Shown piece by piece: positions 33,894 to 53,314 of a stretch of DNA of 64,000 nt. Source of the stretch: Williamsia limnetica (GTDB lineage: Bacteria > Actinomycetota > Actinomycetes > Mycobacteriales > Mycobacteriaceae); assembly GCF_003217475.1 (NCBI RefSeq), contig NZ_QJSP01000020.1, positions 1-64,000 of the forward strand, written 5' to 3'. The notes under the pieces were generated by a model. It saw only the letters and a list, made by a program, of their open reading frames with translations. It was not told the DNA's origin and did not search any database. Each line of letters starts with the position of its first letter. Position 1 is the first letter of the stretch. The translations under genes were made by a program, and so were the position numbers.

Positions 33894-34790
33894 TCAGCTT
33901 TCGTACTCCAGGCACTTCGCTAGAACTGCATGCAGCGCTGGGTTGGTGTCGTCCCGACGCCACGCAGCTCGCATGTCGACCGAAGGTGCAGGATCGGTCA
34001 CGGGAACAAAGGCAACATTCGGATCCATCACATTTCGAGCGACCGATGCCAAAGTGAGGTGACACCCGACCTGCGCGCCGACCAGCGCGAGCGCTGTGTG
34101 GGTGTCTGGCGCGACCTGCACGACTTCGGCGACGAATCCGCTCGCCTGCGCGAGTCTGCGCATCCGGTCCGGCAATACCGCGCCTTCATGCGCCGGCAAG
34201 GTGATGAATGATTCGCCGGAGAGCTGGGCGATGGAGATCTTCTCACTGCGCGCCAAGGGGTGCGTATCGGCGACGGCGATCACGAGAGAATCGGGCATCA
34301 CAACCCTCGTCATGATCGTCGAGGGGATGATGTCCCATCGGCCCAGAGCAATATCTGTGTCGCCGTTGGCAAGCCGTCTCATCGCCGGTCGCGCGAAGTT
34401 CTGGCTCGACAGCTCCAGTTCGATCCCCGGCGCCCGCAACCGCACCGTGCGCGCCAGCTGGGCGATGAGCCGATTGGTCGAAACACCGGCGAACGCGATC
34501 CGCACCAAGCCTGCCTCACCGTCTTCTGCCGCGAGCACCGCGGCCTCTGCGCGTCGCAGAGCTGTGAATACATCCCTGGCCGGCTCGACGAGTGCCCGAC
34601 CACTTGACGTCAACTTCACCGAGCGGGTGTTGCGTTCGAACAGCCGACTCCCCAGCTTGCGCTCGAGCTGACCGATGGTGCGGCTCAGCGCAGGTTGCGC
34701 AACATGGAGCCGCTCTGCGGCACGGCCGAAATGGAGCTCCTCGGCGACGGCCGAAAAAGCTCGCAATTCCCCGATGTTCACCAGCGACAT
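33894..34790 (-). CDS. LysR-family regulator
   Basis: The 298-residue protein has the LysR helix-turn-helix (ELRAFSAVAEELHFGRAAERLHVAQPALSRTIGQLERKLGSRLFERNTRSVKLTSSG) and a periplasmic-binding-like effector domain. It is divergent from the acyl-CoA dehydrogenase gene, with only 84 nt between them, and two inverted repeats lie in that gap. It probably regulates the dehydrogenase in response to an intermediate of the pathway. The effector is unknown. Confidence 0.88.
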   Translation of the reverse strand: MSLVNIGELRAFSAVAEELHFGRAAERLHVAQPALSRTIGQLERKLGSRLFERNTRSVKLTSSGRALVEPARDVFTALRRAEAAVLAAEDGEAGLVRIAFAGVSTNRLIAQLARTVRLRAPGIELELSSQNFARPAMRRLANGDTDIALGRWDIIPSTIMTRVVMPDSLVIAVADTHPLARSEKISIAQLSGESFITLPAHEGAVLPDRMRRLAQASGFVAEVVQVAPDTHTALALVGAQVGCHLTLASVARNVMDPNVAFVPVTDPAPSVDMRAAWRRDDTNPALHAVLAKCLEYES

Positions 34791-34809
34791 CCATGATTCA
34801 TGACAACTG

Positions 34810-34852
34810 AGTTATAACAGAACTGGCAATCGAGTATTGGACTGATACCAAT
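34810..34852. promoter_or_regulatory. candidate LysR binding sites
   Basis: AGTT-N7-AACT (34810-34824) and ATTGG-N7-CCAAT (34836-34852) are inverted repeats in the divergent intergenic region, in keeping with LysR boxes of the T-N11-A type. Confidence 0.4.
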
Positions 34853-34874
34853 TCCCTGCGGCATAGTCCTCAAC

Positions 34875-36062
34875 ATGACCCCAAACGATCCTGCCTTCGC
34901 CGAAGATACCCCCGGCGATGTCTTCGCCGATGTCCTCACCCAGATCAACCAATTCATCCGGTTGCGCGTCGTTCCACGTGAACTCGAGATCATGTCGCAC
35001 GACGAGATCCCCGCCGACCTGCGTCAGCAGGTGAAGGACATGGGTCTTTACGGCTATGCGATTCCCCAGAAATGGGGCGGCCTGGGGCTCGATCCCGCAC
35101 AGGACGTGGAAGTCGCGATGGAGCTCGGCTACACCGCGCTGTCCCTCCGCTCGTTGTTCGGCACCAACAACGGCATTGCAGGTCAGGTGCTGGTCGGGTT
35201 CGGCACGGAGCACCAGCAGGAGCAGTGGCTACCGGGCATCGCCTCCGGTGATATCGTCGCCTCGTTTGCCCTCACCGAACCGGGCGCGGGCTCCAACCCG
35301 GCCGGGTTGAAGACCACCGCTACGGCGGACGGTGGAGACTGGATCATCAACGGTAGCAAGCAATTCATCACCAATGCGCCCGACGCCGGCCTCTTCGTGG
35401 TCTTCGCCAAGACAGACCTCCAGCCCTCCCGCGGTAATGGGATCGCCGTCTTTCTCGTACCGGCCGACAGCCCTGGCATCGTCGTCGGACCCAAGGACGC
35501 GAAGATGGGGCAAGAAGGATCACGCTCGTCAGGCATCACGTTCACCGACGTGCGGGTCGGCGCGGACGCGCTCGTCGGAGGCGACAGCGAAGCCGGGTAC
35601 CGCGCGGCGCTGACCTCTCTGGCCCGAAGCCGCATGGTCATCGCCGCTCTTGCTGTCGGACAGGCACAACGAGCACTCGACGAATCGGTTGCCTACGCAG
35701 CCACCGCCACCCAGGGCGGCACGCCCATCGGCGAATTTCAGCTGGTGCAAGCCATGATCGCCGATCAGCAGACCGGGGTGATGGCCGGGCGCGCACTCGT
35801 CCGGGACGCAGCCCGAGCATGGGTGAATGGCACCGACCGTCGGATCGCACCATCGGTCGCAAAGCTGTTCTGCACCGAGATGGCCGGCAAGAACGCTGAT
35901 CTCGCGGTCCAGGTCCATGGTGGGGCGGGGTACATGCGCGGGGTCGCAGTCGAGCGTATCTACCGCGACGTACGCCTGCTCCGACTGTACGAGGGCACCA
36001 GCGAGATCCAGCGCCTCATCATTGGCGGTGGCCTACTTCGTGCCGAGCGGCAGCGCGCATGA
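34875..36062 (+). CDS. acyl-CoA dehydrogenase
   Basis: The 395-residue FAD enzyme oxidises an acyl-CoA to the 2-enoyl-CoA. FALTEPGAGSNPAGLKTTA is the family signature 1, VQVHGGAGYMRGVAVERIYRDVRLLRLYEGTSEIQ the C-terminal one, with the glutamate of YEGT as the usual catalytic base. The position beside an acyl-CoA ligase, crotonase and SDRs supports a beta-oxidation-like pathway. No clear ribosome binding site precedes ATG 34875. The chain length or type of acyl group is not evident. Confidence 0.9.
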   Translation: MTPNDPAFAEDTPGDVFADVLTQINQFIRLRVVPRELEIMSHDEIPADLRQQVKDMGLYGYAIPQKWGGLGLDPAQDVEVAMELGYTALSLRSLFGTNNGIAGQVLVGFGTEHQQEQWLPGIASGDIVASFALTEPGAGSNPAGLKTTATADGGDWIINGSKQFITNAPDAGLFVVFAKTDLQPSRGNGIAVFLVPADSPGIVVGPKDAKMGQEGSRSSGITFTDVRVGADALVGGDSEAGYRAALTSLARSRMVIAALAVGQAQRALDESVAYAATATQGGTPIGEFQLVQAMIADQQTGVMAGRALVRDAARAWVNGTDRRIAPSVAKLFCTEMAGKNADLAVQVHGGAGYMRGVAVERIYRDVRLLRLYEGTSEIQRLIIGGGLLRAERQRA

Positions 36063-36086
36063 GAACCGCTCTGCTGTAACACGATT

Positions 36087-36112
36087 CGTGATCAATTGGT
36101 CTCCAGATCACG
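36087..36112 (+). terminator. hairpin after acyl-CoA dehydrogenase gene
   Basis: CGTGATC and GATCACG form a 7-bp stem with a 12-nt loop, 25 nt after the stop codon. No T-run follows, so termination is possible but unproven. Confidence 0.3.
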
Positions 36113-36156
36113 GATTTCAGCACCATCGAAGAGGCACGGGTCAATGGCCTCCGTAT

Positions 36157-36191
36157 GATACAGTCAATTGACTGAGTCGATTGACTGTATC
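36157..36191. promoter_or_regulatory. tandem TetR operator pair upstream of SDR gene
   Basis: Two 12-bp palindromes, AGTCAATTGACT (36162-36173) and AGTCGATTGACT (36175-36186), start 13 bp apart. Together they lie in a larger perfect inverted repeat with arms GATACAGTCAAT and ATTGACTGTATC. The same motif occurs at 37402-37426 and 40703-40751. Confidence 0.75.
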
Positions 36192-36343
36192 TTCTTCGAA
36201 CCGGGATCACTCCGTCAGGCATAGAAATTTCGGAAGCTGCGGTTCCGCCGTCCACACACTGCGCCGCCCGCATCGGCCTTCCGAACGAACCTCTGCGGAG
36301 ACCGCAGACCCAACCCCGCCCGACAAGTGAAAGTGAGCAAGCT

Positions 36344-37171
36344 ATGCAGAGCAACTCGGAATTGGCATCGCCGAAGGTGGCACTCGTCACGGGAGCAGGA
36401 CGCTCACGGGGCATCGGCGCGGCTACGGCGTTGCACCTCGCCAGCGCCGGCTACGCCGTGGTCCTCACGGACGTCATACCTGATGGGCACGCCGGTGAGG
36501 AGACGATGGGAGCACTGAAGGCGACTGCCGAGAAGATCGGGGAAAACGGTGGCAGGGCGCTTATTCAGCCCCTTGATGTCACCGACAATGTGCAGGTCAC
36601 CGAGGCCATCGACAATACAGTGACCACCTTCGGTGGGCTATCGGTGCTCGTGAACAACGCAGGGACTGGCGTCGGAGTGGGACCGTTTGCCACGCTCGAC
36701 GACTCGAAGTGGGACCTGTCGTGGCAGATCAACGTGATGGGGGCGGTTCGGTTGAGCCGCGTCGCCCTCCCTCACCTCGCCGAGCAAGGCGGAAGCATCG
36801 TTAATGTCGCTTCCACAGCGGGCATCGCCGCGGAGGCGGGCTATGGCGCGTATGTCGTCACCAAGCACGCTCTCGTCGGACTCACCCGACTCCTCGCCGC
36901 GGAACTCGGCCCGTCGGGCGTCCGCGTCAATGCTGTTGCCCCAGGGATGATTCACACCGACCTCGGCGCGTCTGAGCTCGATGTCATCGCCGACTCCTCT
37001 GGCTCGACCGTCGAAGAGGCTACCCGCGCGGTCGTCGACGGGATCCCCCTCGGACGCCTCGGCACACCCGACGACGTCGCCGCGGCGATCACCTGGCTCG
37101 CTGAAGCCGCCGACTACGTCTCGGGTGCGATCCTCCCCGTCCACGGCGCCGCGGTGTCCGGACTCAACTGA
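36344..37171 (+). CDS. short-chain dehydrogenase/reductase
   Basis: The 275-residue protein has the classical SDR features: cofactor motif TGAGRSRGIG, NNAG in VLVNNAGTGVG, the catalytic serine in VNVASTAG and the Y-x3-K in YVVTKHALVG, then VNAVAPGMIHTDL. It is a NAD(P)(H) oxidoreductase for an alcohol or ketone intermediate. It is the first gene after the tandem operators. The long stretch after the dinucleotide fold (EETMGALKATAEKIGENGG) suggests the mycofactocin-like or carveol-type branch, without certainty. Confidence 0.9.
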   Translation: MQSNSELASPKVALVTGAGRSRGIGAATALHLASAGYAVVLTDVIPDGHAGEETMGALKATAEKIGENGGRALIQPLDVTDNVQVTEAIDNTVTTFGGLSVLVNNAGTGVGVGPFATLDDSKWDLSWQINVMGAVRLSRVALPHLAEQGGSIVNVASTAGIAAEAGYGAYVVTKHALVGLTRLLAAELGPSGVRVNAVAPGMIHTDLGASELDVIADSSGSTVEEATRAVVDGIPLGRLGTPDDVAAAITWLAEAADYVSGAILPVHGAAVSGLN

Positions 37172-37202
37172 CCTTCCTCTCCGAGGAAGGCGGGGACCCC
37201 GC
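37172..37202 (+). terminator. paired hairpins after SDR gene
   Basis: CCTTCCTC-TCC-GAGGAAGG (37172-37190) begins immediately after the stop codon and is followed by GCGGGG-A-CCCCGC (37190-37202). Both stems are perfect, but no clear T-run follows. They may attenuate transcription before the permease gene, which has its own operator. Confidence 0.5.
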
Positions 37203-37401
37203 CCGTCCATTGATGTACGGACAGAGCCCTTTAGCCCCGCAGAAGCATCCGACGACGCCTCCCACAGCAAGGCACTGCCAGGGCGTATCACCTCGCCGGG
37301 TCGGCCAGGGCGATCCGCCCTGGCCGAGTGCTGCGCACGGGTCGACCTACCCGCATCGACGTCCTTTTCCATCTCCGAAATCACATCTGCGTTAATTTCT
37401 C

Positions 37402-37426
37402 GGTCAAGTGACATAGTCGGTTGACT
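37402..37426. promoter_or_regulatory. tandem TetR operator pair upstream of permease gene
   Basis: AGTCGGTTGACT (37415-37426) and an imperfect GGTCAAGTGACA (37402-37413), 13 bp apart, have the same arrangement as at 36157-36191. They lie 78-102 nt before ATG 37504. The rest of 37203-37503 shows no gene. Confidence 0.65.
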
Positions 37427-37503
37427 AAGACGGCAGGAAAAACTACTGTCCCATGCATATGGTCCAGGTCACAATTCTTGGATCACCAGGTACAGGAGTT
37501 CAT

Positions 37504-38973
37504 ATGACAGCGAGTAGCCAACGTTTGAGTGGCAACCTCACCACCTTCAAGATCGTGACGATGGTGGTCGCGGCGGCCGCGCCGATGGGTGCCGTCATCG
37601 GCATCATTCCGATCGCGATGGCGATCGGCACCGGGGCCACCACACCACTTGTGTTCGTCGTCGCGGCCGCGTTGCTGCTGTGTTTCGCAGTCGGTTACGC
37701 GGCGATGAGCAGACGGATGTCGGCCTCCGGCGGCTTCTACACCTACATCGCCAAGGGGCTCGGGCGGTCGACTGCCATGGCCGCAGCGGTCATCGCGATC
37801 ACCGCCTACCTGTCACTGACACTGCTGATCTTGGCCGGGGTGGGGAACTTCGGGAACACGGTGGCCGCCGTCCTCACCGGGCATGACGTGCCGTGGTGGG
37901 CCTTCTCGGCAGTTGCGCTCGCGCTCGTCGCGGTGATGGGAGTTCGCGAGATCAACATCGCGGGAAACGTTCTCGCAGTCATGCTCGGCGTCGAAATCCT
38001 GGCAATCCTGGTGCTCGACATCGCGATCGTCGCCCAGAAGGGCCTCGACGCTTTCCCGTTGGCTGCGATGAACCCGACTGACCTATTCACCGCGGGCTCG
38101 TTCGGATTGGGAATCATGTTCGCGTTCACCACGTTCCTCGGCTTCGAGTCCGCCGCGATCTATGCCGAGGAGTCGAAGGACCCGCACCGGACGATCCCCC
38201 GCGCTACCTACTCAGCAGTCGTCCTGATCGCCACTTTCTACGCGGTGACCACCTGGATCATGGTGGGCGGCATCGGAGTCGACAATGTGCAGGAGACCGC
38301 TGAAGCGAAACTGAGCGGACTGTCGTTCTGGCTCAGCGCCGAGTATGCGTCGGATCTGCTGACCAAGGTCATGTATGTCACCGTCTTCACGAGCCTGTTC
38401 GCGGCCATGCTCGCCTTGCACAACGCTTCGAGCCGGTACATTTTCTCGATCGGACGCGAAGGTGCGCTGCTTCCAACATGGTTCGGCGTCGCGCACTCCA
38501 AGTTCGACACTCCGGCACGGGCAAGCATCGCGGTGACGATCCTGACATCGGCTGTCACCGTGGTCTTCGCGGTGCTCGGTGCCGACCCGTACCTGACCAT
38601 GCTCACCATCATGACCGGACTCGGGACGCTCGGAATCGTCCTCCTCCAGGCACTTGCTGCCGGCGCAATCATGGTCTACTTCTGGCGGACCTCACGCAGT
38701 AGCACCGGCGTACTCGTCGGATCGGCGATCGGTCTCGTCGCCTTCGTCACTGTCTCCATCTTGATCCTCAAGAACTTTCAGACCCTGGCAGGCAGCGATT
38801 CCGCGTGGATCAACGTCTTGCCCTGGTGCCTTCTCTTGGCTGCCGCGCTCGGCGGCCTTCGGGGCGTCTGGCTCAAATCGCACAAACCCGATGCGTACGC
38901 GCGCATCGGCACCTTCGGCGACCAGACGGCTCCCGCCCACGAGGAGCTGCCCAGCACTCCCCTGCAGAAGTAG
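37504..38973 (+). CDS. APC-family amino acid/amine permease
   Basis: The 489-residue membrane protein has about 12 hydrophobic segments. The APC features are visible in FKIVTMVVAAAAPMGAVIG (helix 1, unwound region), GFYTYIAKGLGRSTAMAA and FLGFESAAIYAEESKDPHRTIPRA. It probably imports an amino acid, polyamine or related cation as substrate of the surrounding pathway. ATG 37504 is chosen because AGGAG lies 5 nt upstream; a frame from 37453 is less likely. It follows the second tandem operator. Confidence 0.9.
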   Translation: MTASSQRLSGNLTTFKIVTMVVAAAAPMGAVIGIIPIAMAIGTGATTPLVFVVAAALLLCFAVGYAAMSRRMSASGGFYTYIAKGLGRSTAMAAAVIAITAYLSLTLLILAGVGNFGNTVAAVLTGHDVPWWAFSAVALALVAVMGVREINIAGNVLAVMLGVEILAILVLDIAIVAQKGLDAFPLAAMNPTDLFTAGSFGLGIMFAFTTFLGFESAAIYAEESKDPHRTIPRATYSAVVLIATFYAVTTWIMVGGIGVDNVQETAEAKLSGLSFWLSAEYASDLLTKVMYVTVFTSLFAAMLALHNASSRYIFSIGREGALLPTWFGVAHSKFDTPARASIAVTILTSAVTVVFAVLGADPYLTMLTIMTGLGTLGIVLLQALAAGAIMVYFWRTSRSSTGVLVGSAIGLVAFVTVSILILKNFQTLAGSDSAWINVLPWCLLLAAALGGLRGVWLKSHKPDAYARIGTFGDQTAPAHEELPSTPLQK

Positions 38974-39026
38974 GCAGAGCACTTCACCCAGCAGTCGTCC
39001 AAACATCCACCTTCAGAAAGGTCTTC

Positions 39027-40025
39027 ATGAAAACGCGCATCACCGAACTGTTCGGCATCCAGTACCCCATCATCCAGGGCGGAATGCACCACGTCGGATA
39101 CGCGGGGCTGGCCGCCGCGGTATCGAACGCCGGCGGCCTCGGGCTGATCACCGCACTCACCCAGAAGACGCCCGGCGACCTCGCCGCCGAGATCAAGAAG
39201 TGTCACGACCTCACCGAGAAACCGTTCGGCGTCAACCTCACCTTCCTCCCGTCCGTGAATCCGCCGGACTACGGCGCCTACGTGAACGCCATCATCGACG
39301 GAGGCGTACGGATCGTCGAGACGGCAGGCAATGAGCCCTCTCAATGGCTACCGCCCCTCAAAGCCAACGGCGTCAGCATCATTCACAAGTGCACAACGGT
39401 GCGCCACGCACTCAAGGCGCAGGCGATCGGATGCGACGCGGTCAGCGTCGACGGCTTCGAATGCGGCGGGCATCCCGGCGAGGACGACATCCCCAACATG
39501 ATCTTGCTACCCCGGGCTGCCGACGAGCTGGAGATCCCTTTCGTCGCCTCTGGAGGGCAGGCCGACGGCCGATCTCTGGCGGCATCCCTCGCGCTGGGAG
39601 CGGAAGGGATCAACATGGGCACCCGGTTCCTCGCCACGAAGGAAGCTCCGGTTCATGAGAACGTCAAGAGGGCCATCGTCGGGGCAACCGAACTCGACAC
39701 TCGGCTGATCATGCGTCCCCTGCGGAACACCGAGCGCGTTCTCAACAACGCAGCGGTGGAGCGTCTTCTGGACAAGGAACGGACCCTCGGGGCCGACATT
39801 ACATTCGAGGACATCAGGGCCGAGGTTGCCGGCGTGTATCCGCGGGTGATGATCGATGGCGATGTCGGCGCAGGCGGTTGGTCGTGCGGAATGGTTGCCG
39901 GACTGATCCACGACATCCCCACCGTCGCCGAACTGATCGAACGCATCGTCGCCGAGGCCCGCCACATCACCGAGACTCGGCTGCCCGGACTGTTTCAAGA
40001 GCAGAACGAGCCGGCCTTCACCTGA
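39027..40025 (+). CDS. nitronate monooxygenase-like flavoprotein (catabolic island)
   Basis: The 332-residue TIM-barrel flavoprotein reads FGIQYPIIQGGMHHVGYAGLAAAVSNAGGLGLITA, then VDGFECGGHPGEDD and VASGGQADGRSLAASLALGAEGINMGTRFLATKEAP, the FMN-binding parts of the 2-nitropropane dioxygenase family. GAAAGG precedes ATG 39027. Located between the permease and the TetR gene, it may reduce or oxidise an enone or nitro intermediate. It differs from the other family member at 23973-25043 in length and context. Confidence 0.87.
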   Translation: MKTRITELFGIQYPIIQGGMHHVGYAGLAAAVSNAGGLGLITALTQKTPGDLAAEIKKCHDLTEKPFGVNLTFLPSVNPPDYGAYVNAIIDGGVRIVETAGNEPSQWLPPLKANGVSIIHKCTTVRHALKAQAIGCDAVSVDGFECGGHPGEDDIPNMILLPRAADELEIPFVASGGQADGRSLAASLALGAEGINMGTRFLATKEAPVHENVKRAIVGATELDTRLIMRPLRNTERVLNNAAVERLLDKERTLGADITFEDIRAEVAGVYPRVMIDGDVGAGGWSCGMVAGLIHDIPTVAELIERIVAEARHITETRLPGLFQEQNEPAFT

Positions 40026-40042
40026 CAGGCCGCAGCCGGCGA

Positions 40043-40645
40043 TCAACGGTCGCGAGGCGTCGCCAGCGATGTGAAGTAGTCGGCAAACGCATCCAGTGAC
40101 GCCTCCGCGGCTGCGGTGTCCCGGTCGGCCAGCCACCCGAGGACCAACCCGTCGATCGCGCTGGTCAACATGCGGGCGAGCACCGACCGCGGCACGACCC
40201 AACCGACACCGGCGATCTCCTCCATCGTCGCGATCGACCGTTCCGTCTGGGCGTAATACTGGGCGTACTGCCACTCGGCCAGGGCGGCGAGGTCCGGCTC
40301 ACGCAGGACGTAAGTGGTCAGTTCGTATCCGACCAGCTGACGTTCAGGATGCGCCTTGGCCTTGTCCCACGCACTACGGATCCCGTTGCGGAACGATTCG
40401 CCCACATCGGTGGTCACCTTCTTGGCGTCGATGGCAGCGTCGATCATGGAACCGATCGTGATCTGGACCAGCTCCTCGAGCAGTTCCTTCTTCGAACCGA
40501 ACGAGTAGTGGAAGACGCTTTGGTGGACACCGGCTTCCGCGCAGATCGCCCGCGTGGTCGTTTGCGCCACTCCATCGCGGGCCATCACCTGAAAAGCCGC
40601 CTCGACCAGGTCTTGACGCCGCTGTTGCACGGAAACGCGTGCCAT
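40043..40645 (-). CDS. TetR-family repressor of the catabolic island
   Basis: The 200-residue protein has the TetR DNA-binding domain (RRQDLVEAAFQVMARDGVAQTTTRAICAEAGVHQSVFHYSFGSKKELLEEL) and a helical ligand domain with aromatic residues (YAQYYAQTE). It is transcribed divergently from the flavin monooxygenase gene. The operator-like tandem palindromes at 40703-40751 in the gap, and the same motif before the SDR and permease genes, make it the likely local repressor. The inducer is unknown. Confidence 0.88.
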   Translation of the reverse strand: MARVSVQQRRQDLVEAAFQVMARDGVAQTTTRAICAEAGVHQSVFHYSFGSKKELLEELVQITIGSMIDAAIDAKKVTTDVGESFRNGIRSAWDKAKAHPERQLVGYELTTYVLREPDLAALAEWQYAQYYAQTERSIATMEEIAGVGWVVPRSVLARMLTSAIDGLVLGWLADRDTAAAEASLDAFADYFTSLATPRDR

Positions 40646-40702
40646 GTGCTGTTCTCCTCATCTCGACCAAACGGGCAGTCACTTGTCGAACTGCGTCATT
40701 GT

Positions 40703-40751
40703 AGTCACTTGACCAAGATCATAGTTAGTCGGCCGACTGAGTCGGTTGACA
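40703..40751. promoter_or_regulatory. TetR operator cluster between tetR and monooxygenase genes
   Basis: AGTCGGCCGACT (40727-40738) and AGTCGGTTGACA (40740-40751) again start 13 bp apart, with an imperfect AGTCACTTGACC at 40703-40714. They lie in the divergent intergenic region and could control both the regulator and the monooxygenase operon. Confidence 0.75.
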
Positions 40752-40822
40752 TACTTAGTGGTTGTAGTCATGCTCGTACTCAGAGCGTCAAGCAGTTCTC
40801 GCCAATCAATCAAGGAGACAAC

Positions 40823-42148
40823 GTGAGTGAAGATGTCGCGCGGAGCGACCGGGTATGCGTCATCGGCGCGGGACCGTCTGGGCTGGCCACAGCGCGGCAG
40901 CTGCGCGAAGCCGGCATCCCTTTTGACGTCCACGAAAAGCATTCCGACGTCGGTGGTATCTGGGACCCCACCAACGAGGGGAGCCCGATCTACCGGACCG
41001 CTCATTTCATCAGTTCGAGGTTCAACAGTGGGTTCTACGGCCACCCCATGCCCGATTCGTACCCCGACTACCCGTCGTGGTCACAGATCCGAGACTACAT
41101 CCACGACTTCGCTACCGACGAAAAGCTCTACGAATACATCACATTCAACTCCCGGGTCGAGCACGCCGAGCTTCGCAGTGACGGACAGTGGGACGTCACC
41201 GTCGGCGGCGAGCAAAAGCGCTATCGAGCACTGGCGGTGGCGACCGGTGTCACGTGGCACGCCAGCACCCCGGAACTGAAAGGGCAAGAGACCTTCACGG
41301 GCAAGATGATGCACTCGTCGGAGTACTCCGACAGTTCGATCTTCTGGGACAAGAAAGTGCTCATCGTCGGTGCAGGCAACTCAGGGGTCGACATCGCATG
41401 CGACGCCGCCACCAGCGCCGAACGCGCATTCCTCAGTGTCCGCCGCGGATATCGCTTCATCCCCAAACACATCTTCGGCATGCCGCTGGACGTGTTCTCC
41501 AAAGGGGGACGGAAGGCGCCTGCGGGAATAACCCTGCCCGACAACATGGATGAGATCGTCGACGCTCTCGTCGGTGACGTGACTCGCTTTGGACTCCCGG
41601 CACCAGATCACGATCTGCTCACATCGCATCCGATCGTCAACGATCAGATCATCCACCATTTCAATCACGGCGACATCACCGCCAAGCCCGACATCGACCG
41701 GCTCGAGGGATCGGACGTCGTGTTCAAAGACGGTACCCGAGAACAGATCGACGTTCTTCTGCTGGCGACCGGATACGACTACAAGATCCCCTTTCTGGAT
41801 GATCAGTTGTTCGAATGGCAGAACGGCAGACCGCAGCTCTACCTCAACACCTTCAACCGCACGGTTGACTCCCTGTATGTCGTGGGTTTCGTCGAGTTCG
41901 CCGACGCAGCGTACAAGCGATTCGAGGAAATGGCCCAGCTGGTCGCCATGGACCTCACGCTCGAAGGAGCCGAGAAGGCGACGTTCGCGGAGATGAAGGC
42001 ACATCACCAGCCCGATCTTCGCGGCGGCCGACACTACGTCGACTCTCCCCGTCACGCCAATTACGTCGACACACTCACGTTTCAACAACGAATGCGCGAG
42101 ATTCGCGATCAGTTCGGGGTCGACCAGCTGACCGACACCGCGCCCTGA
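40823..42148 (+). CDS. class B flavin-dependent monooxygenase
   Basis: The 441-residue enzyme has the FAD motif VIGAGPSGLATARQL, the FMO fingerprint FTGKMMHSSEY (FxGxxxHxxxY), the NADPH motif VLIVGAGNSGVDIACDAA and the later LLLATGYDYKIPF. It belongs to the group of N- or S-oxygenating and Baeyer-Villiger-like enzymes using FAD, NADPH and O2. GTG 40823 has AAGGAG 5 nt upstream. It opens an operon with the DUF4188, ligase, SDR and crotonase genes. It may attack an amine or ketone substrate imported by the nearby permease, which is inference. Confidence 0.9.
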   Translation: MSEDVARSDRVCVIGAGPSGLATARQLREAGIPFDVHEKHSDVGGIWDPTNEGSPIYRTAHFISSRFNSGFYGHPMPDSYPDYPSWSQIRDYIHDFATDEKLYEYITFNSRVEHAELRSDGQWDVTVGGEQKRYRALAVATGVTWHASTPELKGQETFTGKMMHSSEYSDSSIFWDKKVLIVGAGNSGVDIACDAATSAERAFLSVRRGYRFIPKHIFGMPLDVFSKGGRKAPAGITLPDNMDEIVDALVGDVTRFGLPAPDHDLLTSHPIVNDQIIHHFNHGDITAKPDIDRLEGSDVVFKDGTREQIDVLLLATGYDYKIPFLDDQLFEWQNGRPQLYLNTFNRTVDSLYVVGFVEFADAAYKRFEEMAQLVAMDLTLEGAEKATFAEMKAHHQPDLRGGRHYVDSPRHANYVDTLTFQQRMREIRDQFGVDQLTDTAP

Positions 42149-42208: not shown

Positions 42209-42742
42209 ATGTCGAATGTCAGACGAGGGCGAACAACCCATCTCTACGACGGCGAACTGGTCGTGTTCCACATCGGAATGACTTTCAACAAATGGTGGCG
42301 GCCCGACCTATGGGTGCCGGTATTCCTCGCCATGCCGATGATGGTGAAAGAGTTGAGCGAAGACCCGGAGTCGGGCCTGCTCGACTACGAAATGCTGTTC
42401 AACCGCAATGGCCCCTATGTGGTGCAGTACTGGTCGTCGATCGACAAGCTGTATGAGTACGCATCTGAGGGATCCCTGGCCCACCGGCCGGCGTGGGCCA
42501 AGTTCAATCGCACGGCGCGAAAGGCGCCCGGTGCGGTCGGGGTCTGGCACGAGACATTCGTGGTCGAGCGTGCCGAGAGCATGGTCGTCGACACCAAACC
42601 TCTGGGCCTCCCGCGGGCCACCACAGCCGTGGCCGTGCAGAAGGAACACGCCCGTGCACAGTCCCGACTGACCGACGGCCGCACAACCTTGCCCTCAACG
42701 TCAGCCGGCCTCGACCGCACCGGAGGAGGTGACAACCCATGA
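42209..42742 (+). CDS. DUF4188 domain protein
   Basis: The 177-residue protein reads ELVVFHIGMTFNKWWRPDLWVPVFLAMPMMVKEL, then YVVQYWSSIDKLYEYA and AVGVWHETFVV, the conserved pattern of DUF4188, a ferredoxin-like alpha/beta-barrel family. The histidine and tryptophans suggest a ligand site. RBS AAAGGA precedes ATG 42209. Its stop overlaps the next gene's ATG as ATGA (42739-42742). It may act directly after the monooxygenase; no reaction is established. Confidence 0.8.
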   Translation: MSNVRRGRTTHLYDGELVVFHIGMTFNKWWRPDLWVPVFLAMPMMVKELSEDPESGLLDYEMLFNRNGPYVVQYWSSIDKLYEYASEGSLAHRPAWAKFNRTARKAPGAVGVWHETFVVERAESMVVDTKPLGLPRATTAVAVQKEHARAQSRLTDGRTTLPSTSAGLDRTGGGDNP

Positions 42743-44268
42743 GTTGGTACACCGTTGCGCGCCATGAGCCCTCGACACCGGCCATCGTCGATGGAACCCA
42801 GACGTTGACTTTCGGGCAACTCCGCTCGGTTGTCGCGCGTATCACGGCTGGTTTCGACAAGATGGGCGTAGCCGCCGGCCATACTGTCGCGGTCGTCCTG
42901 CCCAACTGCTGGGAACTGCTCGCGATCGAACTCGCTGCCTTGAGTACCGAGCGGTACTTCCTGCCCATCAATCACCATCTGACAGCTGACGAGATTGCCT
43001 ACATTCTGGGCAACAGTGCGCCCTCCGTGGTGGTGACCAACAACGAACTGCTCGATGTGGTCGAGGCTGCTGCAGGCCAGGTCACCGACTCCGTTTTCGA
43101 CCATGTGCAAACCACCGGGCCCGGTGTCCACGCCTTTGATCGAGTATGGGCCCATCTCCCCGATTGTGATCCCGAGGTTCGACGCGCTGGCTCGGTCGTC
43201 TATTACAGCTCAGGAACCACCGGCCGGCCCAAGGGAATCCGGCGGCCGCTCAGCGGCACCACACCGGAGCAGGAATCTGACGCGTCCCAGGTTGCCTGGG
43301 CCAAACTCCAGGTCGCTCCGGGCCCCGGGGTGCATGTGGCCGTCGCGCCCCTCTACCACGCAGCTCCAAACGGAATGGCCCTCGGAGCGCTCGGCCGTGG
43401 TGTGACAGTCGTCATTGCACCCGGAAAGCGTTTCGACGCAGCCCGATTCCTGTCTCTCGCCGGCGAGGTGGGGATGACGGAATCTTTTATGGTTCCGACG
43501 ATGTTCGTGCGCCTGCTGCAACTCCCGCCGGCCCAGCGGGAGGCCTTCGACCCAAGCCTGTTGCGATGCGTCGTCCATGCCGGTGCACCCTGCCCCATCT
43601 CGGTCAAACAGCACATGATCAGCTGGTGGGGACCGATCGTCTCCGAGTTCTACGGGTCGACCGAGAGTTCAGTGACCACCACCGTCACCAGCGCGGAATG
43701 GCTCGACGCCCCTGGCACCGTGGGAGGTGCGCGCCCCGGTTGCCGGATTGAGATCCACGATCGACAAGGCAGTGTTCTGCCGCCCGGGGACGAAGGCCTC
43801 ATCTGCATCATCGGCAGCCAGCCCTTTGAATACATCGGCGATCCGGGCAAGACCCAGGAGAGCTGGGTCGACGGTGGACTTGTCCTCGGCGACATCGGGC
43901 GGCTCGACGAGGCTGGGCGGTTGTTCGTTCTCGACCGTCGCAGCGACCTGATCCTCACCGGCGGCGTCAACGTGTATCCGGCGGAGATCGAACTGGCCCT
44001 GAGCAACCATCCGCAGGTTCAAGACATCGTTGTCATCGGGATGCCCGACGACGAATGGGGCCAGCGAGTTCTCGCGGTCGTGCAACCCGCCGAAGGTGTC
44101 GATAGGAATGCTCTCGCAGAGGATCTGGCGGCTTACGCCAGCCCGATCCTCGCGAAGTTTAAGCAGCCACGCGAGTACCGCATTGTCGACGAGATCCCAC
44201 GAATGCCCACCGGGAAGGTCAATCGGACGGCCATCCGCGAACGACAGATTGACTCTGGGCAGGCCTGA
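42739..44268 (+). CDS. acyl-CoA ligase (AMP-binding, FadD-type)
   Basis: The 509-residue adenylate-forming enzyme activates a carboxylic acid to its CoA thioester with ATP. The P-loop reads VYYSSGTTGRPKGI, motif A5 SEFYGSTESS, and the hinge region GDIGRLDEAGRLFVLDRRSDLILTGGVNVYPAEIE, with the catalytic lysine in PTGKVNR. All landmarks are intact. It is translationally coupled to the DUF4188 gene and is followed by SDR and crotonase genes, so the product would enter a beta-oxidation-like sequence. Confidence 0.92.
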   Translation: MSWYTVARHEPSTPAIVDGTQTLTFGQLRSVVARITAGFDKMGVAAGHTVAVVLPNCWELLAIELAALSTERYFLPINHHLTADEIAYILGNSAPSVVVTNNELLDVVEAAAGQVTDSVFDHVQTTGPGVHAFDRVWAHLPDCDPEVRRAGSVVYYSSGTTGRPKGIRRPLSGTTPEQESDASQVAWAKLQVAPGPGVHVAVAPLYHAAPNGMALGALGRGVTVVIAPGKRFDAARFLSLAGEVGMTESFMVPTMFVRLLQLPPAQREAFDPSLLRCVVHAGAPCPISVKQHMISWWGPIVSEFYGSTESSVTTTVTSAEWLDAPGTVGGARPGCRIEIHDRQGSVLPPGDEGLICIIGSQPFEYIGDPGKTQESWVDGGLVLGDIGRLDEAGRLFVLDRRSDLILTGGVNVYPAEIELALSNHPQVQDIVVIGMPDDEWGQRVLAVVQPAEGVDRNALAEDLAAYASPILAKFKQPREYRIVDEIPRMPTGKVNRTAIRERQIDSGQA

Positions 44269-44391: not shown

Positions 44392-45123
44392 ATGCTACTC
44401 AACGACACAACTGCGGTCATCACAGGCGGAGGCCAAGGTATCGGCGCCGCGATCGCCCGCACGTTCGCCGACAATGGCGCGCGAATCGTCATCGGCGATC
44501 TGGACGAAGCCCGCGCCAAAGAGTTCGCCGCGTCGATCGGTGTCGACGCCGTGGGCGTGGGCTGCGACGTGGCAGACGGTGACAGCGTGTCGGCGCTGCT
44601 CGACGTCGCCATCGCCTCTTTCGGATCGCTCGACGTGATGGTCAACAACGCCGGCATCACCCGCGACGCGACCATGCGCACGATGACGGATCAGCAGTTC
44701 GATGATGTTGTCGCCGTGCACCTCCGAGGTACCTGGAACGGCACCCGCCTGGCTGCGGGCATCATGCGCGCAAACGGAGGAGGCTCGATCATCAACATGT
44801 CCTCGATCTCGGGCAAGGTCGGGTTCATCGGCCAGACCAACTATTCCGCCGCCAAAGCCGGCATCGTCGGGTTGACGAAAGCCGCAGCCAAGGAGGTAGC
44901 TCACCACGCAGTGCGCGTCAACGCCATCGCCCCCGGGCTCATCCGCACCGCCATGACCGAGGCCATGCCCGCTGCGGCACTTGAGTCCAAGATGGGCGAG
45001 ATCCCGATGCAACGCGCGGGCGAGCCTTCCGAAATCGCTTCGGTTGCGCTGTTTTACGCATCCAAGATGTCCTCGTACATGACCGGTACCGTTGCCGAGG
45101 TCACCGGCGGACGGCACATCTGA
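44392..45123 (+). CDS. SDR, FabG-like 3-hydroxyacyl-CoA dehydrogenase
   Basis: The 243-residue protein has [28 protein letters not shown] and [18 protein letters not shown] (Y-x3-K), then VNAIAPGLI and an end in EVTGG, all typical of FabG-like SDRs. It would oxidise a 3-hydroxyacyl-CoA from the ligase/crotonase route. GAAGGA precedes ATG 44392. It differs from the other SDR (36344-37171). Confidence 0.9.
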
Positions 45124-45206
45124 CTCCCGGCCTGGCACGTCGGTCCCCAATCTTGGACCGTGAGCAGATGCGGCACAACAGCAATGCAACGACCAGGAGA
45201 TCTCGA

Positions 45207-45989
45207 ATGTCACATCCCACTCGAGCAGGCATCGACGAATCAGCGGCGAAGCGCACAGATGTGGCGACAGTTCGCAGCGAAGATCCTGCTGACGGCGTGA
45301 GAGTTTTGACCATTGATCGCAGGCATCGACGAAACGCTCTGGACCACGCCACGTACCTGGCCCTTGTTGCTGCGCTGGAAGATACCGACGCAGACCCCGA
45401 CATCAGGGCGATCGTACTGACCGGCGCCGGTGACACCTTCACCAGCGGCAACGACATCGCCGACTTCCGGCAACAAGGCCCTCGCGGTGGGCCCCTGTTG
45501 TTTTCGGCCTTGATCAAGCTGCGAAAGCCGGTGATCGCGGCCGTGGAAGGCCATGCAGTGGGGATCGGAGTGACATTGCTGCTGCACTGCGACCTGGCGT
45601 TCGCAGGTGAGACGGCACAGTTCCGGCTGCCCTTCACCGCGCTAGGACTGTGCCCCGAAGGTGGATCGAGCTACCTCCTCCCCCGTCTCGCCGGCGAGAA
45701 ACGCGCCAACGAGATGCTGTTGCTCGGGGAGAGGTTCACTGCTGCGGAGGCGGCTGCAGCGGGTCTTATCAATCGGGCTGTGCCATCAGGCGACGCGCTA
45801 GAGGATGCGGTTCGGGCGGCAGCGACGCTCGCGCAGCGGCCAACAGCATCTGTGCTGGCCACCAAGGCGCTCATCCGAGCCCATCGGGATCCCACAGTCT
45901 CCGCAGCTCTGGCTGCCGAGTTAGAGGTGTTTGCCGAGCGGCTCGCCGATGAGGCAACTCAGGCCATCCTGTCCGCGCCACGCGGCTGA
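45207..45989 (+). CDS. enoyl-CoA hydratase/isomerase-family protein
   Basis: The 260-residue crotonase-fold protein has oxyanion-hole segments SGNDIADF and VEGHAVGIGVTLLLHCD, and the glutamate in LGLCPEGGSSYLLPRLAG. The other hydratase glutamate position (in RLPFTALG) is not acidic, a pattern found in isomerase-type or single-glutamate crotonases rather than standard hydratases. ATG 45207 follows AGGAG by 7 nt; a frame from 45153 is open but lacks such a site. It is the last gene of the TetR-linked operon. Confidence 0.87.
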   Translation: MSHPTRAGIDESAAKRTDVATVRSEDPADGVRVLTIDRRHRRNALDHATYLALVAALEDTDADPDIRAIVLTGAGDTFTSGNDIADFRQQGPRGGPLLFSALIKLRKPVIAAVEGHAVGIGVTLLLHCDLAFAGETAQFRLPFTALGLCPEGGSSYLLPRLAGEKRANEMLLLGERFTAAEAAAAGLINRAVPSGDALEDAVRAAATLAQRPTASVLATKALIRAHRDPTVSAALAAELEVFAERLADEATQAILSAPRG

Positions 45990-46870: not shown

Positions 46871-49468
46871 CTACCCGCGGGCCATATCCACGAACCGACT
46901 CAAATGTAGTTGGTGCGCAACGGTAATCGTCGACGTCGGACCGTTACGGTGCTTACCAAGAATGATGTCGGCTTCACCGGCGCGGGGGTCGTCCCGCTCG
47001 AACGCATCAGGCCGATGCAGCAGGATGACCATGTCGGCATCCTGCTCCAGTGAGCCTGACTCGCGAAGGTCAGAAATCATGGGGCGCTTGTCAGTTCGCT
47101 GTTCAGGACCACGGTTCAGCTGACTGATTGCGACCACCGGAACCTCGAGCTCCTTCGCGAGAAGCTTGATGCTTCGCGAGAACTCCGAGACTTCCTGCTG
47201 GCGAGATTCGACCTTTTTACCCGAGGACATCAGCTGCATGTAGTCGATGACCACCAGCTTGAGATCATGCTTCTGCTTCAAACGCCTTGCCTTGGCCCGG
47301 ATTTCCATCATCGTCAGGTTGGGCGAGTCGTCGATGAACAGCGGCGCCTCCGAGATCTCACCCATCCGGCGTGCCAGCCGCGTCCAGTCGTCGTCGCTCA
47401 TCTTTCCTGAACGCATGTCGCCGAGCTTGATCTTCGCTTCGGCCGAGAGCAACCGCATCACGATCTCGGTTTTGCTCATTTCCAGCGAGAACATGGCACT
47501 CGTCATGTGGTGCTTGATGGAGCATGAACGCAAGAAGTCCATGGCGAGCGTGGAGTTGTGAGTCGGGATCATGGAATCACCTGCGAGGTACATGTGATCA
47601 GCGTTGTCGACCTGGACGCACCGTACCGGCACGCTCTCGACCTGTCGCACGTCGACGATGTACCTCGCCGAAGACCGTGCGAGATTTGTTGCCTGTCGAC
47701 GTTCTTTGTGCAGAAGGGCCTTGCGAGAAAGTCCAAAGACCTCGTCGTCAGTCGAGAAGGTCAAGGTGTACGCGACCGAAGACGCCTCGGTGTGGCCTTT
47801 GACCCGCTTTGTCGAAGTGCCGCAACGATATCCGAGACTCACAACGACTTCGCGAACGTCGCTGACCAGACGTGCATTAGTGCCCGTGAATTGCACAGCA
47901 CCACCCGCCGTGACTGTACCGTCGGTGTCCAGCAACCCGGCGAGAAGCGCGCGCCGCTGGTCCTCTGAAGACCTCAGGTACGCGGTCGGTATGTGCTTGT
48001 TGTTCAGAACGCCCAGCATACGAAGACGGCCCTGCACGCTGCCCACTGTGTTCAAGCACTCTTGGCAGGCGTACTTTCCGGTAAACTCGCGGCCGCACCA
48101 TTTACAGGGCGTGGGCGCAACTGGCGCAGACATGAAACGCGACTTCCCGCCGCACGACTGTCCGCAAGTCCTCACATGAGCGAAAGCCGGAACGAACTCG
48201 ACGCCGCAAACAACGCAGTTCTTGGAGGCGATCGGGTCGTTGGCCGGAAGCCTGATCCAGTATCGCATTGTCACATTCGGACTCAACCGGCAGACATAAC
48301 CTTCGGCCTCGATCCGCATCGGGATTTCCGGGTCATCCGAGGTGAGATTCGCGGTGGCCGAGGTACCGTCACCGAGCCAAGCACCAAGCGTGTAGGGCTG
48401 GACCAGCAGGTCGCGCTCCGGCAATTGGACCGGCTTCGCGTTGGAGACCGAGTGATTGACCCGGCGATCCTTGGTGTTCGTCCTCAACGTGGAGAGTATC
48501 TCCGCTGTCGTCCGAACCTCAGCTTGCGCTTTCGAGTGGCGGCGAGAAGCTCGGGTGTCGGTCAACCACTGGTGCTGCTCATCGGCCACGATCACTGAAC
48601 CATCGGAGAACTCAACTTCATAGCAAGGCCGATCAACCATCTCCTCAGTGGCCGCAACAACGCGGGTGGGCTTGCCGTCGGCGCCGATCAGGTGATCGCC
48701 GACCTGGATCTCACCCATGGTGGTCCATCCCGATGGCGTGGCCAGCGGCGTATCGAGGGCCAAGGCTTTTCCGACGCCAGGTCTCGCCGCCACGATGATC
48801 ATCTGACCCGCATGCAAACCGTTGGTGAGTTCGTCGAGATCGTGGAAACCCGTTGGCACCCCGAGCGACAGACCGCCCCGCGAGGCGATCGAGTCGATCT
48901 CGTCCATCGTCGGCTGCAGTAGCTCTTCAAGAGCCACATAATCTTCTGCGGTACGGCGTTCGGTGACCTCATAGACCTCGGCCTGCGCGCGGTCGACGAC
49001 TTCGGCGACATCCTGCCCGTCGGCCCCGGCATAGCCGTACTGGACGATGCGGGTGCCCGCTTCCACCAGTCGACGCAGGATGGCCTTCTCGGCGACGATC
49101 TCCGCGTAGTAGCCGGCGTTGGCGGCCGTGGGAACCGTCGAGATCAAGGTGTGCAGATAGGGCGCGCCACCGATGCGGCGCAACTCTCCTGCACGGTCCA
49201 GCTGGCCCGCCACGGTCACCGCGTCGGCTGGTTCACCCTTGGCATACAGATCGAGGATCGCGTCGTACACGGCTTGATGGGCTGGACGGTAGAAGTCGCC
49301 GGGCCGCAGCTTTTCGAGGACGTCGGCGATGGCGTCCTTCGACAGCATCATGCCGCCCAGCACAGATTGCTCCGCGGCCATGTCTTGCGGAGGCTGGCGA
49401 CCGAAGTCCTCACTCGGGGGGGCCTGCTCTCGAGCCTCGGCATGCCCACGGTCGTCAACTACGGCCAA
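46871..49468 (-). CDS. dnaB: replicative DNA helicase with an intein
   Basis: The 865-residue precursor consists of an N-extein of 234 residues, an intein of 404 and a C-extein of 227; after splicing, a normal 461-residue DnaB remains. The N-domain has PQDMAAEQSVLGGMML and the RecA-like domain MIIVAARPGVGK|STLAMDF (Walker A, interrupted by the intein at the bar) and LVVIDYMQLM (Walker B). The end SLEQDADMVILLHRPDAF ... GPTSTITVAHQ includes the arginine-finger region. The start is TTG 49468 with AAGGGG 7 nt upstream. DnaB is the ring helicase of the replication fork, and function requires splicing. Confidence 0.95.
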   Translation of the reverse strand: MAVVDDRGHAEAREQAPPSEDFGRQPPQDMAAEQSVLGGMMLSKDAIADVLEKLRPGDFYRPAHQAVYDAILDLYAKGEPADAVTVAGQLDRAGELRRIGGAPYLHTLISTVPTAANAGYYAEIVAEKAILRRLVEAGTRIVQYGYAGADGQDVAEVVDRAQAEVYEVTERRTAEDYVALEELLQPTMDEIDSIASRGGLSLGVPTGFHDLDELTNGLHAGQMIIVAARPGVGKALALDTPLATPSGWTTMGEIQVGDHLIGADGKPTRVVAATEEMVDRPCYEVEFSDGSVIVADEQHQWLTDTRASRRHSKAQAEVRTTAEILSTLRTNTKDRRVNHSVSNAKPVQLPERDLLVQPYTLGAWLGDGTSATANLTSDDPEIPMRIEAEGYVCRLSPNVTMRYWIRLPANDPIASKNCVVCGVEFVPAFAHVRTCGQSCGGKSRFMSAPVAPTPCKWCGREFTGKYACQECLNTVGSVQGRLRMLGVLNNKHIPTAYLRSSEDQRRALLAGLLDTDGTVTAGGAVQFTGTNARLVSDVREVVVSLGYRCGTSTKRVKGHTEASSVAYTLTFSTDDEVFGLSRKALLHKERRQATNLARSSARYIVDVRQVESVPVRCVQVDNADHMYLAGDSMIPTHNSTLAMDFLRSCSIKHHMTSAMFSLEMSKTEIVMRLLSAEAKIKLGDMRSGKMSDDDWTRLARRMGEISEAPLFIDDSPNLTMMEIRAKARRLKQKHDLKLVVIDYMQLMSSGKKVESRQQEVSEFSRSIKLLAKELEVPVVAISQLNRGPEQRTDKRPMISDLRESGSLEQDADMVILLHRPDAFERDDPRAGEADIILGKHRNGPTSTITVAHQLHLSRFVDMARG
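47555..48766 (-). other. DnaB intein, class 3 type, with LAGLIDADG and zinc-ribbon segments
   Basis: The 404-residue intein starts with Ala (ALALDTPLATPSGW), not Cys/Ser, and ends PTHN before the +1 Ser. It has Trp67 in HQWLTD (block B), Cys383 in VPVRCVQVDN (block F) and Thr402 in IPTHN (block G), the W/C/T set that defines class 3 inteins. Homing-endonuclease LAGLIDADG helices appear as LGAWLGDGT (about 127-135) and ALLAGLLDTDGT (about 273-284). Between them, CxxC/CxxxC pairs (residues 184-205 and 221-237) look like two zinc ribbons. The insertion lies in the Walker A loop, a conserved site. Confidence 0.9.
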
Positions 49469-53302: not shown

Positions 53303-53314
53303 GAGATGGCAACC

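What the first reader, a model, noticed from the sequence alone, without database searches (positions are those of the whole stretch)
36157..40751. A local TetR regulon marked by tandem 12-bp palindromes with 13-bp period
AGTCRRYYGACT-like palindromes occur in pairs at exactly 13-bp spacing in three intergenic regions (36162/36175, 37402/37415, 40727/40740), before the SDR, the permease and the divergent tetR/monooxygenase operon. The repeated geometry is hard to explain by chance and points to a cooperative, two-dimer TetR operator.
Basis: seen in the sequence. Interest (0 to 1): 0.75.

Follow-up and report, generated by a model that had tools for sequence, protein, structure and literature searches.

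The report
Tandem-palindrome operator of TetR subfamily
Three control regions around a small metabolic gene cluster carry side-by-side copies of the same short mirror-image DNA word exactly 13 bases apart, and the same arrangement recurs in front of related repressor genes in other bacteria, so it is very probably the landing strip of that repressor.

Summary
Palindrome pairs (core GTCN4GAC, 13-bp period) lie at 36162/36175, 37402/37415 and 40727/40740: the only three places in the 6.35-Mb genome with at most 2 mismatches to AGTCN4GACTNAGTCN4GACT. Dinucleotide shuffles of the three spacers reach them 0, 1 and 0 times in 20,000.

The TetR link is supported by comparison. In the window and six relatives' loci (43-82% TetR identity), 12 of 12 regions that I chose hold a complete unit, 7 of 12 an exact pair. 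Of 26 tetR upstreams, 13 have a 13-bp pair with at most 1 mismatch; each other spacing from 10 to 20 has 0-1. Searching for the DNA pair alone lands within 1.5 kb of a relative of this TetR in 7 of 28 loci; with 14-bp spacing 0 of 21, plus one weak.

At 6 of 13 TTGAC half-sites facing a target, TAnnnT follows at 17 nt; a -10-like box abuts the tetR-side unit in 5 of 6. Best reading: an autoregulated repressor, one dimer per unit, two or three units head to tail. Binding, cooperativity and ligand are untested.

The parts
36157..36191 (.). Operator A: pair 36162-36173 and 36175-36186 inside a 35-bp near-perfect palindrome; upstream of SDR
37402..37426 (.). Operator B: pair 37402-37413 and 37415-37426; upstream of permease
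37421..37449 (+). Predicted permease promoter: TTGACT (37421-37426, last half-site of operator B) - 17 nt - TACTGT (37444-37449)
40727..40751 (.). Operator C: pair 40727-40738 and 40740-40751 between divergent tetR and FMO
40703..40714 (.). Third complete unit, tetR side, 24 bp from the operator C pair
40698..40703 (-). TACAAT, predicted -10 of tetR, overlapping the end of the 40703 unit by one base
40746..40774 (+). Weak predicted FMO promoter: TTGACA (40746-40751, last half-site of operator C) - 17 nt - CATGCT
40043..40645 (-). TetR-family regulator, 200 aa, presumed binder of the sites
36344..37171 (+). SDR oxidoreductase (presumed target)
37504..38973 (+). APC-type amino-acid/amine permease (presumed target); start at 37504 behind AGGAG preferred over the ORF start 37453
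   Evidence: Pfam scan was of 37453-38973
39027..40025 (+). Nitronate-monooxygenase family protein, nearest solved relative PA1024; presumed to be co-transcribed with the permease
40823..42148 (+). FMO-like flavin monooxygenase (presumed target, first gene of the divergent operon)
42209..42742 (+). Monooxy_af470-like (DUF4188) protein, presumed operon with FMO
42739..44268 (+). AMP-binding acyl-CoA ligase
44392..45123 (+). FabG-like SDR
45153..45989 (+). Enoyl-CoA hydratase family protein

Best explanation
The paired palindromes are the operators of the TetR encoded at 40043-40645. One TetR dimer recognises one RGTCN4GACY unit. Units are laid head to tail at a fixed 13-bp step (two here, three in some relatives), so neighbouring dimers sit next to each other, turned by about 86 degrees, and probably help each other bind. 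The array covers promoter elements: the outer TTGAC(T/A) half-site of the array is itself the -35 box of the target promoter (permease, perhaps FMO), and on the other side tetR's own -10-like box abuts a unit. Bound TetR would block RNA polymerase at the FMO operon, the permease-NMO operon, the SDR gene and tetR itself; a ligand (perhaps a substrate or intermediate of this amine/acyl-CoA pathway) would release it. Shown: the geometry, its rarity, its co-occurrence with this TetR subfamily, its placement on promoter-like elements. Inferred: binding, stoichiometry, cooperativity, repression, ligand. The confidence below is for the core (these are this TetR's operators and it represses from them); the cooperative part I hold at about 0.5, and the first rival shares the core.
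For: Only three places genome-wide at <=2 mismatches, all within 4.6 kb of each other around this tetR; shuffles 0/1/0 of 20,000. In 12 intergenic regions that I chose in the window and six relatives' loci, 12 of 12 hold at least one complete unit and 7 of 12 an exact 13-bp pair (the L062 region was chosen because the pattern pointed to it); triple arrays in Amycolatopsis pithecellobii L013 and Nonomuraea L014. 26 distinct tetR upstreams: 13-bp pairs with <=1 mismatch of 12 in 13; spacings 10-12 and 14-20: 0-1 each; without the 4 loci that were found by the pattern 9 of 22, and without the window too 8 of 21. DNA-only search of 397 genomes: 35 exact 13-bp places (reversed control 11); 28 non-self loci examined, 7 with a TetR of this subfamily within 1.5 kb (HTH HMM E <= 3e-20), 5 of them with the pair within about 150 bp before tetR; 14-bp control 22 places (reversed control 16), 21 loci, 0 strong and 1 weak (E 3e-7) (Fisher 0.014 without and 0.06 with the weak one). 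TTGAC half-sites facing a target: TAnnnT at 17 nt in 6 of 13, at 18 in 1, at 14 in 1, none at the other spacers from 8 to 29. tetR side: TAnnnT at -1 to 0 nt from the end of the nearest unit in 5 of 6. The recognition stretch RAICAEAGVHQSVFHY is identical in the window, L012, L013 and L014 and in L032 and L062.
Against: No binding or expression data. 9 of 26 tetR upstreams have no pair at <=2 mismatches (one of these, L062, has its arrays in front of the operon instead), and at the 2-mismatch level other spacings also reach up to 5 of 26. 5 of 12 regions have only complete units without an exact partner at 13 bp. The generic sigma-70 scan found no promoter in 35900-41000; SDR has no 17-nt promoter match and FMO's -10 is weak. 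Relatives share ancestry (for example L071 and L073, and L074-L076, come from two genera), so counts are not independent; L074's pair is GC-rich and may be chance. 21 of 28 pattern loci have no such TetR within 1.5 kb, and one of the seven that do (L053) was already known, while in L047 the pair is about 1 kb from the tetR start.
Confidence: 0.85

Rival explanations
1. Same TetR and sites, but the two units are filled independently: tandem copies only raise local occupancy, with no contact between dimers.
For: Isolated complete units exist at 40703 and in relatives (5 of 26 units in 12 regions), so a single unit can probably be a site on its own.
Against: Spacing is locked at 13 bp: at <=1 mismatch no other spacing from 10 to 20 exceeds 1 of 26 upstreams. 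Independent sites should drift in spacing. The window itself has one unit at 24 bp, though.
Confidence: 0.3
2. The recognised dyad is the central junction GACYNRGTC, or the whole 25-35-bp palindrome, not the 12-bp unit; a QacR-like two-dimer complex is arranged about one pseudo-dyad.
For: 36157-36191 is a near-perfect 35-bp palindrome about its central base. M. abscessus MAB_4384 binds two dimers to a 27-bp operator of two 13-nt inverted sequences with 1-nt spacer (PMC5895659, passages read).
Against: Triple arrays in L013, L014, L071, L073. Where one element is missing it is mostly the junction: 5 isolated complete units among 26 against 1 orphan junction among 16 in 12 regions. The flanks of operators B and C are not clearly palindromic (by eye).
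Confidence: 0.12
3. Another regulator (a TetR paralogue or the nearby LysR 33894-34790) uses these sites.
For: The genome has 3 other matches to this TetR at E <= 1e-6, and one of them (L099) has a 2-mismatch 13-bp pair about 295 bp before its start, a level that background also reaches; LysR lies close by.
Against: Neither of the two nearest paralogues (32-36% identity) has a pair of <=1 mismatch upstream (L099 best 2 in 300 bp, best 4 in 250 bp; L100 best 4); the third, L101, was not tested. No unit is in the LysR-ACAD gap 34791-34874; none of the 28 features annotated around the pCRE138 cluster, which keeps the sites, is a LysR.
Confidence: 0.04
4. Chance or a dispersed repeat.
For: The single 12-mer is as frequent as in shuffles, and the loosest pair search is at background.
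Against:: close pairs are rare genome-wide and tied to this TetR; unit sequences differ in their centres, so they are not copies of one repeat.
Confidence: 0.02

Closest known systems
QacR / CprB class of TetR regulators (dimer of dimers on one operator)
   Same: TetR family; more than one dimer expected per operator; cooperative binding is reported for QacR and CprB (PMC4150764, abstract and passages read).
   Different: QacR is described as binding one 28-bp palindrome as a tetramer (PMC4482099, passage), and this class in several instances reads non-palindromic sites (PMC4150764, passage); here each unit is a complete palindrome at a 13-bp step and arrays reach three. QacR's own paper was not read.
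MAB_4384 operator of Mycobacterium abscessus mmpS5/mmpL5
   Same: 27-bp operator of two 13-nt inverted sequences with a 1-nt spacer, two dimers per DNA (PMC5895659, passages read).
   Different: Described as one palindrome with degenerate arms; target is an efflux pump. Relatedness of MAB_4384 to this TetR was not tested.
EthR and Mce3R
   Same: Motifs said to be larger and in multiple copies (PMC4482099, passage read).
   Different: Said not to conform to the classical palindrome; here every unit is one. Their sequences were not compared.
DarR (Rhodococcus/Mycobacterium)
   Same: TetR dimer-of-dimers on DNA (PMC10636190, passages read).
   Different: Palindromes are called overlapping there; here they are separated by one base.
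BetI (NCBIfam TIGR03384)
   Same: Best curated match of this TetR; all 16 members scanned match it at E <= 1e-6.
   Different: 46.9 bits against a cut-off of 201.3; none of the ten cluster genes scanned is a choline gene by its Pfam matches.

Membership tests
TetR family of regulators | N-terminal TetR_N helix-turn-helix domain | tested here: met
   PF00440, 47.0 bits, cut-off 24
TetR family of regulators | Palindromic operator in the divergent intergenic region | tested here: met
   Units at 40703, 40727, 40740 between tetR and FMO; that they are operators is inferred
TetR family of regulators | Protein binds the operator and a ligand releases it | not testable with these tools
   Needs bench work
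Two-dimer (QacR-like) operator class | Two dimers bound per operator, cooperatively | not testable with these tools
   Fixed 13-bp spacing is only indirect support
Two-dimer (QacR-like) operator class | Overlapping half-sites on one DNA site (recalled as its mark; 'overlapping palindromes' is printed for DarR) | tested here: not met
   Units are separate 12-bp palindromes with a 1-bp spacer
BetI equivalog | Score above the curated cut-off | tested here: not met
   46.9 against 201.3 bits for the window protein; bit scores of the other 15 members were not shown
Local regulon of this TetR | Same sites before several operons of one cluster, absent elsewhere | tested here: met
   Three places of at most 2 mismatches, all here; weaker sites elsewhere cannot be told from background
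Local regulon of this TetR | Sites conserved before the same kinds of genes in relatives | tested here: met
   12 of 12 chosen regions with a unit, 7 of 12 with an exact pair

The most novel reading that the evidence does not exclude
A TetR subfamily (signature TTRxI..EAG.....FHY.F) reads DNA as a lattice: abutting palindromes at a fixed 13-bp step, one dimer per unit, with two or three units setting the steepness of the switch, and with the lattice ends built into the promoters (-35 of the target at one end, -10 of tetR at the other).
Probability: 0.4. Interest if true: 0.6.

Novelty: new variant of a known kind. Interest (0 to 1): 0.45.

Why it matters
It gives a DNA signature that predicts the operator, the autoregulation and some target promoters of a TetR subfamily directly from sequence, in a regulator with no curated family name. 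If the fixed 13-bp lattice is cooperative it is a simple natural series (1, 2, 3 units) for testing how unit number sets the sharpness of a repressor switch, and the parts are compact enough for biosensor use. It also points to the ligand: the recurring targets are an APC permease, an FMO and enzymes of acyl-CoA metabolism.

Tried and rejected
Structure prediction of the TetR: switched off, so no fold comparison. Generic sigma-70 scan: no promoter found; the promoter reading rests on the targeted tests. The relaxed genome scan with RGTCN4GACY pairs at 2 mismatches is at background (40 against 36) and was not used to add targets. A wider search of 394 genomes of the class for the TetR at E <= 1e-45 found only the window's own (eight candidates scored per genome, so misses are possible). 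Of 35 plasmid records with a match I fetched 2. L015, one of the four loci, matches only 57 residues and has no pair; it was left out.

Paper searches, for this operator, its letters, a tandem 13-bp TetR operator, or this cluster, gave no print of it that I saw. Most hits were seen in the listing only: one search found 52 papers, 30 listed, judged by title; one search found 30, 20 listed; one search found 57, 8 listed; the two papers and the one were not opened. One paper holding two of the short strings (PMC11784139, passages read) has them only in primers. PMC8053128 (MtrR; passages) describes a single MtrR site with N4 centre. The idea that the FMO is a Baeyer-Villiger enzyme was dropped: its motif reads FTGKMMHSSEY (recalled FMO-type rule FxGxxxHxxxY/F; not from a call). 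Nitronate chemistry is uncertain because the NMO's nearest solved relative is PA1024, recalled to be an NADH:quinone reductase.

Errors of mine: one search used contig orientation wrongly for minus-strand loci among L016-L031 (orientation established); one search replaces it. The upstream scan of L100 and L101 had the same fault; redid L100, and for L101 only a stretch of the reading frame was shown, so its upstream was not tested. One search miscounted isolated units through an index slip; one search replaces it. In one search, 43 entries (with the window) were cut to 26 by removing duplicate upstreams; a filter for hits that do not reach the protein start was also on, and how many it dropped was not printed; L047 and L050 are not among the 26. 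Of 35 exact 13-bp places, 5 were not examined for neighbours (one locus per genome was given); of 22, 1 was not. The HTH model was trained partly on loci found by the pattern.

Full report
What was checked. The window (G000:C20:1-64000 of an unnamed 6.35-Mb genome) holds, at 33.9-46.0 kb, a LysR gene, an acyl-CoA dehydrogenase, an SDR, an APC permease, a nitronate-monooxygenase family gene, a TetR on the minus strand, and a divergent run FMO - Monooxy_af470-like - acyl-CoA ligase - FabG-like SDR - enoyl-CoA hydratase. The three paired palindromes are at the stated coordinates with exact 13-bp offset.

Is it more than chance? A single AGTCRRYYGACT-like 12-mer is not (30 against 28.7 expected). 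The pair is. In the whole genome AGTCN4GACTNAGTCN4GACT with up to 3 mismatches is found at 11 places against 24 for the reversed control, but only the three window sites have 2 or fewer mismatches. The looser RGTCN4GACY pair at up to 2 mismatches is at background (40 against 36), yet 3 of the 4 places with at most 1 mismatch are these. In 20,000 dinucleotide shuffles of each intergenic stretch, 0, 1 and 0 reached the observed match.

Does it go with this TetR? Of 9 genomes of the genus searched only the window's own has the TetR at E <= 1e-30, so the cluster looks accessory here (inference). I chose 12 intergenic regions in these and the window (one of them, in L062, because the pattern pointed to it). 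All 12 hold at least one complete GTCN4GAC unit, and 7 of 12 an exact 13-bp pair; the other five do not. On pCRE138 (91.7 kb) the pattern at up to 2 mismatches occurs at 3 places (control 0), two of them before the SDR and before the permease. Arrays of three units stand in L013 and L014.

Is the spacing special? For 26 distinct upstream stretches of TetR relatives, the window included, I took the best pair of GTCN4GAC at every spacing from 10 to 20 bp. At 13 bp, 13 of 26 have at most 1 mismatch of 12; at every other spacing 0 or 1 of 26 (Fisher 1.6e-4 against the best other spacing). Four of the 26 loci had been found through the pattern; without them it is 9 of 22 (0.005 against 1 of 22), and without the window too 8 of 21. 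Some of these come from one genus and are not independent. At the looser limit of 2 mismatches 13 bp gives 17 of 26 against up to 5 of 26 elsewhere, and 9 of 26 have no pair at all.

A search from the DNA side. RGTCN4GACYNRGTCN4GACY, exact, was sought in 397 genomes of the order: 35 places in 29 genomes, reversed control 11 places in 11 genomes (counted from its listing). The same with one more spacer base: 22 places in 21 genomes, reversed control 16 places, 9 of them in one genome. Within 1.5 kb of the 13-bp places a TetR of this subfamily lies in 7 of 28 non-self loci (L035, L041, L046, L047, L050, L053, L061); for the 14-bp places in 0 of 21, with one weak other TetR. In five of the seven the pair is within about 150 bp before tetR; in L053, already known, it is before the operon, and in L047 about 1 kb off. 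Fisher's test gives 0.014, or 0.06 if the weak one counts. The HMM used had been trained partly on these loci; six of the seven were also found by plain tblastn with the window protein. Neighbours differ (amine oxidase in L061, fatty-acid hydroxylase in L046, CoA transferase in L047, ABC transporter in L035), so the geometry goes with the regulator, not with one pathway.

Where do the units sit? Among 13 TTGAC half-sites of units facing a target gene, a TAnnnT box follows at 17 nt in 6, at 18 nt in 1, at 14 nt in 1 and at no other spacer between 8 and 29 (chance about 0.2 per spacer; binomial 2e-8 for the six at 17, ignoring shared ancestry). The six are the permease of the window, two sites before the permease of pCRE138, the permeases of the two Amycolatopsis, and the operon of L062. 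In the window FMO has TTGACA-17-CATGCT, a weak form, and SDR has no 17-nt match. On the tetR side a TAnnnT box begins 1 base before to 0 bases after the end of the nearest unit in 5 of 6 (window TACAAT at the 40703 unit, L032, L013, L014, and L012 where that unit has 1 mismatch; not L033). So an array in a divergent region can cover tetR's own -10 at one end and the target's -35 at the other: the anatomy of an autoregulated repressor. The generic promoter scan found nothing, which is told against this reading.

Which element is the unit? Isolated complete GTCN4GAC units occur 5 times among 26 in the 12 regions, orphan GACN3GTC junctions once among 16, and triple arrays exist; this favours one dimer per 12-bp palindrome rather than recognition of the central junction. 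Half-sites then alternate at 7 and 6 bp, and successive dimers are turned by about 86 degrees (13 bp at a recalled 10.5 bp per turn; arithmetic, inference).

What does the regulon do? The TetR has no curated name: best NCBIfam match BetI at 46.9 bits, cut-off 201.3; nearest solved sequences are weak. The permease is of the APC class. The FMO is nearest to PDB 8z12-8z17 and to FMO-type enzymes by a recalled motif. The NMO is nearest to PA1024. With the acyl-CoA enzymes this suggests uptake and oxidative breakdown of an amine- or amino-acid-like compound with a carbon chain that ends in beta-oxidation; the substrate is unknown and this is inference.

Comparison with the literature. TetR regulators that bind as a dimer of dimers are known (PMC4150764, abstract and passages; PMC10636190, passages; PMC5895659, passages; PMC6449355, abstract and passages). 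A survey of mycobacterial TetR motifs was read in passages only; its motif logos are not in the text (PMC4482099), so an earlier sighting there cannot be excluded. My searches did not show me a 13-bp head-to-tail array of complete palindromes; most hits were seen in listings only, and many journals are outside the library.

Verdict. The finding is larger than stated: the geometry is a trait of a subfamily. It remains a variant of a familiar theme, a TetR repressor with multiple operator units, and binding and cooperativity are untested.

Noticed in passing
window 46871-49468 (-): DnaB replicative helicase ORF of 865 aa with a long insertion between its N- and C-terminal domains (Pfam matches 25-127 and 639-860), most likely an intein (no intein model was run against it alone).
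   Followed up: partly
window 37453-37504: The longest permease ORF starts at 37453, at about the predicted transcription start; ATG 37504 behind AGGAG is the better start.
   Followed up: partly
window 39027-40025: Labelled nitronate monooxygenase by Pfam, but its nearest solved relatives are 2gjl (PA1024) and 6e2a, recalled to be an NADH:quinone reductase.
   Followed up: no
L099 (G000:C21:53201-53821): A paralogue of the TetR (32% identity) whose match contains one in-frame TGA; its best upstream 13-bp pair has 2 mismatches, about 295 bp off.
   Followed up: partly
window 51167-53932: MMPL-family transporter gene followed at once by a lipocalin-like gene.
   Followed up: no
L032 17160 and 17590 (pCRE138): The pCRE138 permease has a unit near the gene and another, with a decayed partner, about 430 bp further up, each with TTGACT-17-TAnnnT, perhaps two promoters.
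   Followed up: partly
   Followed up: partly
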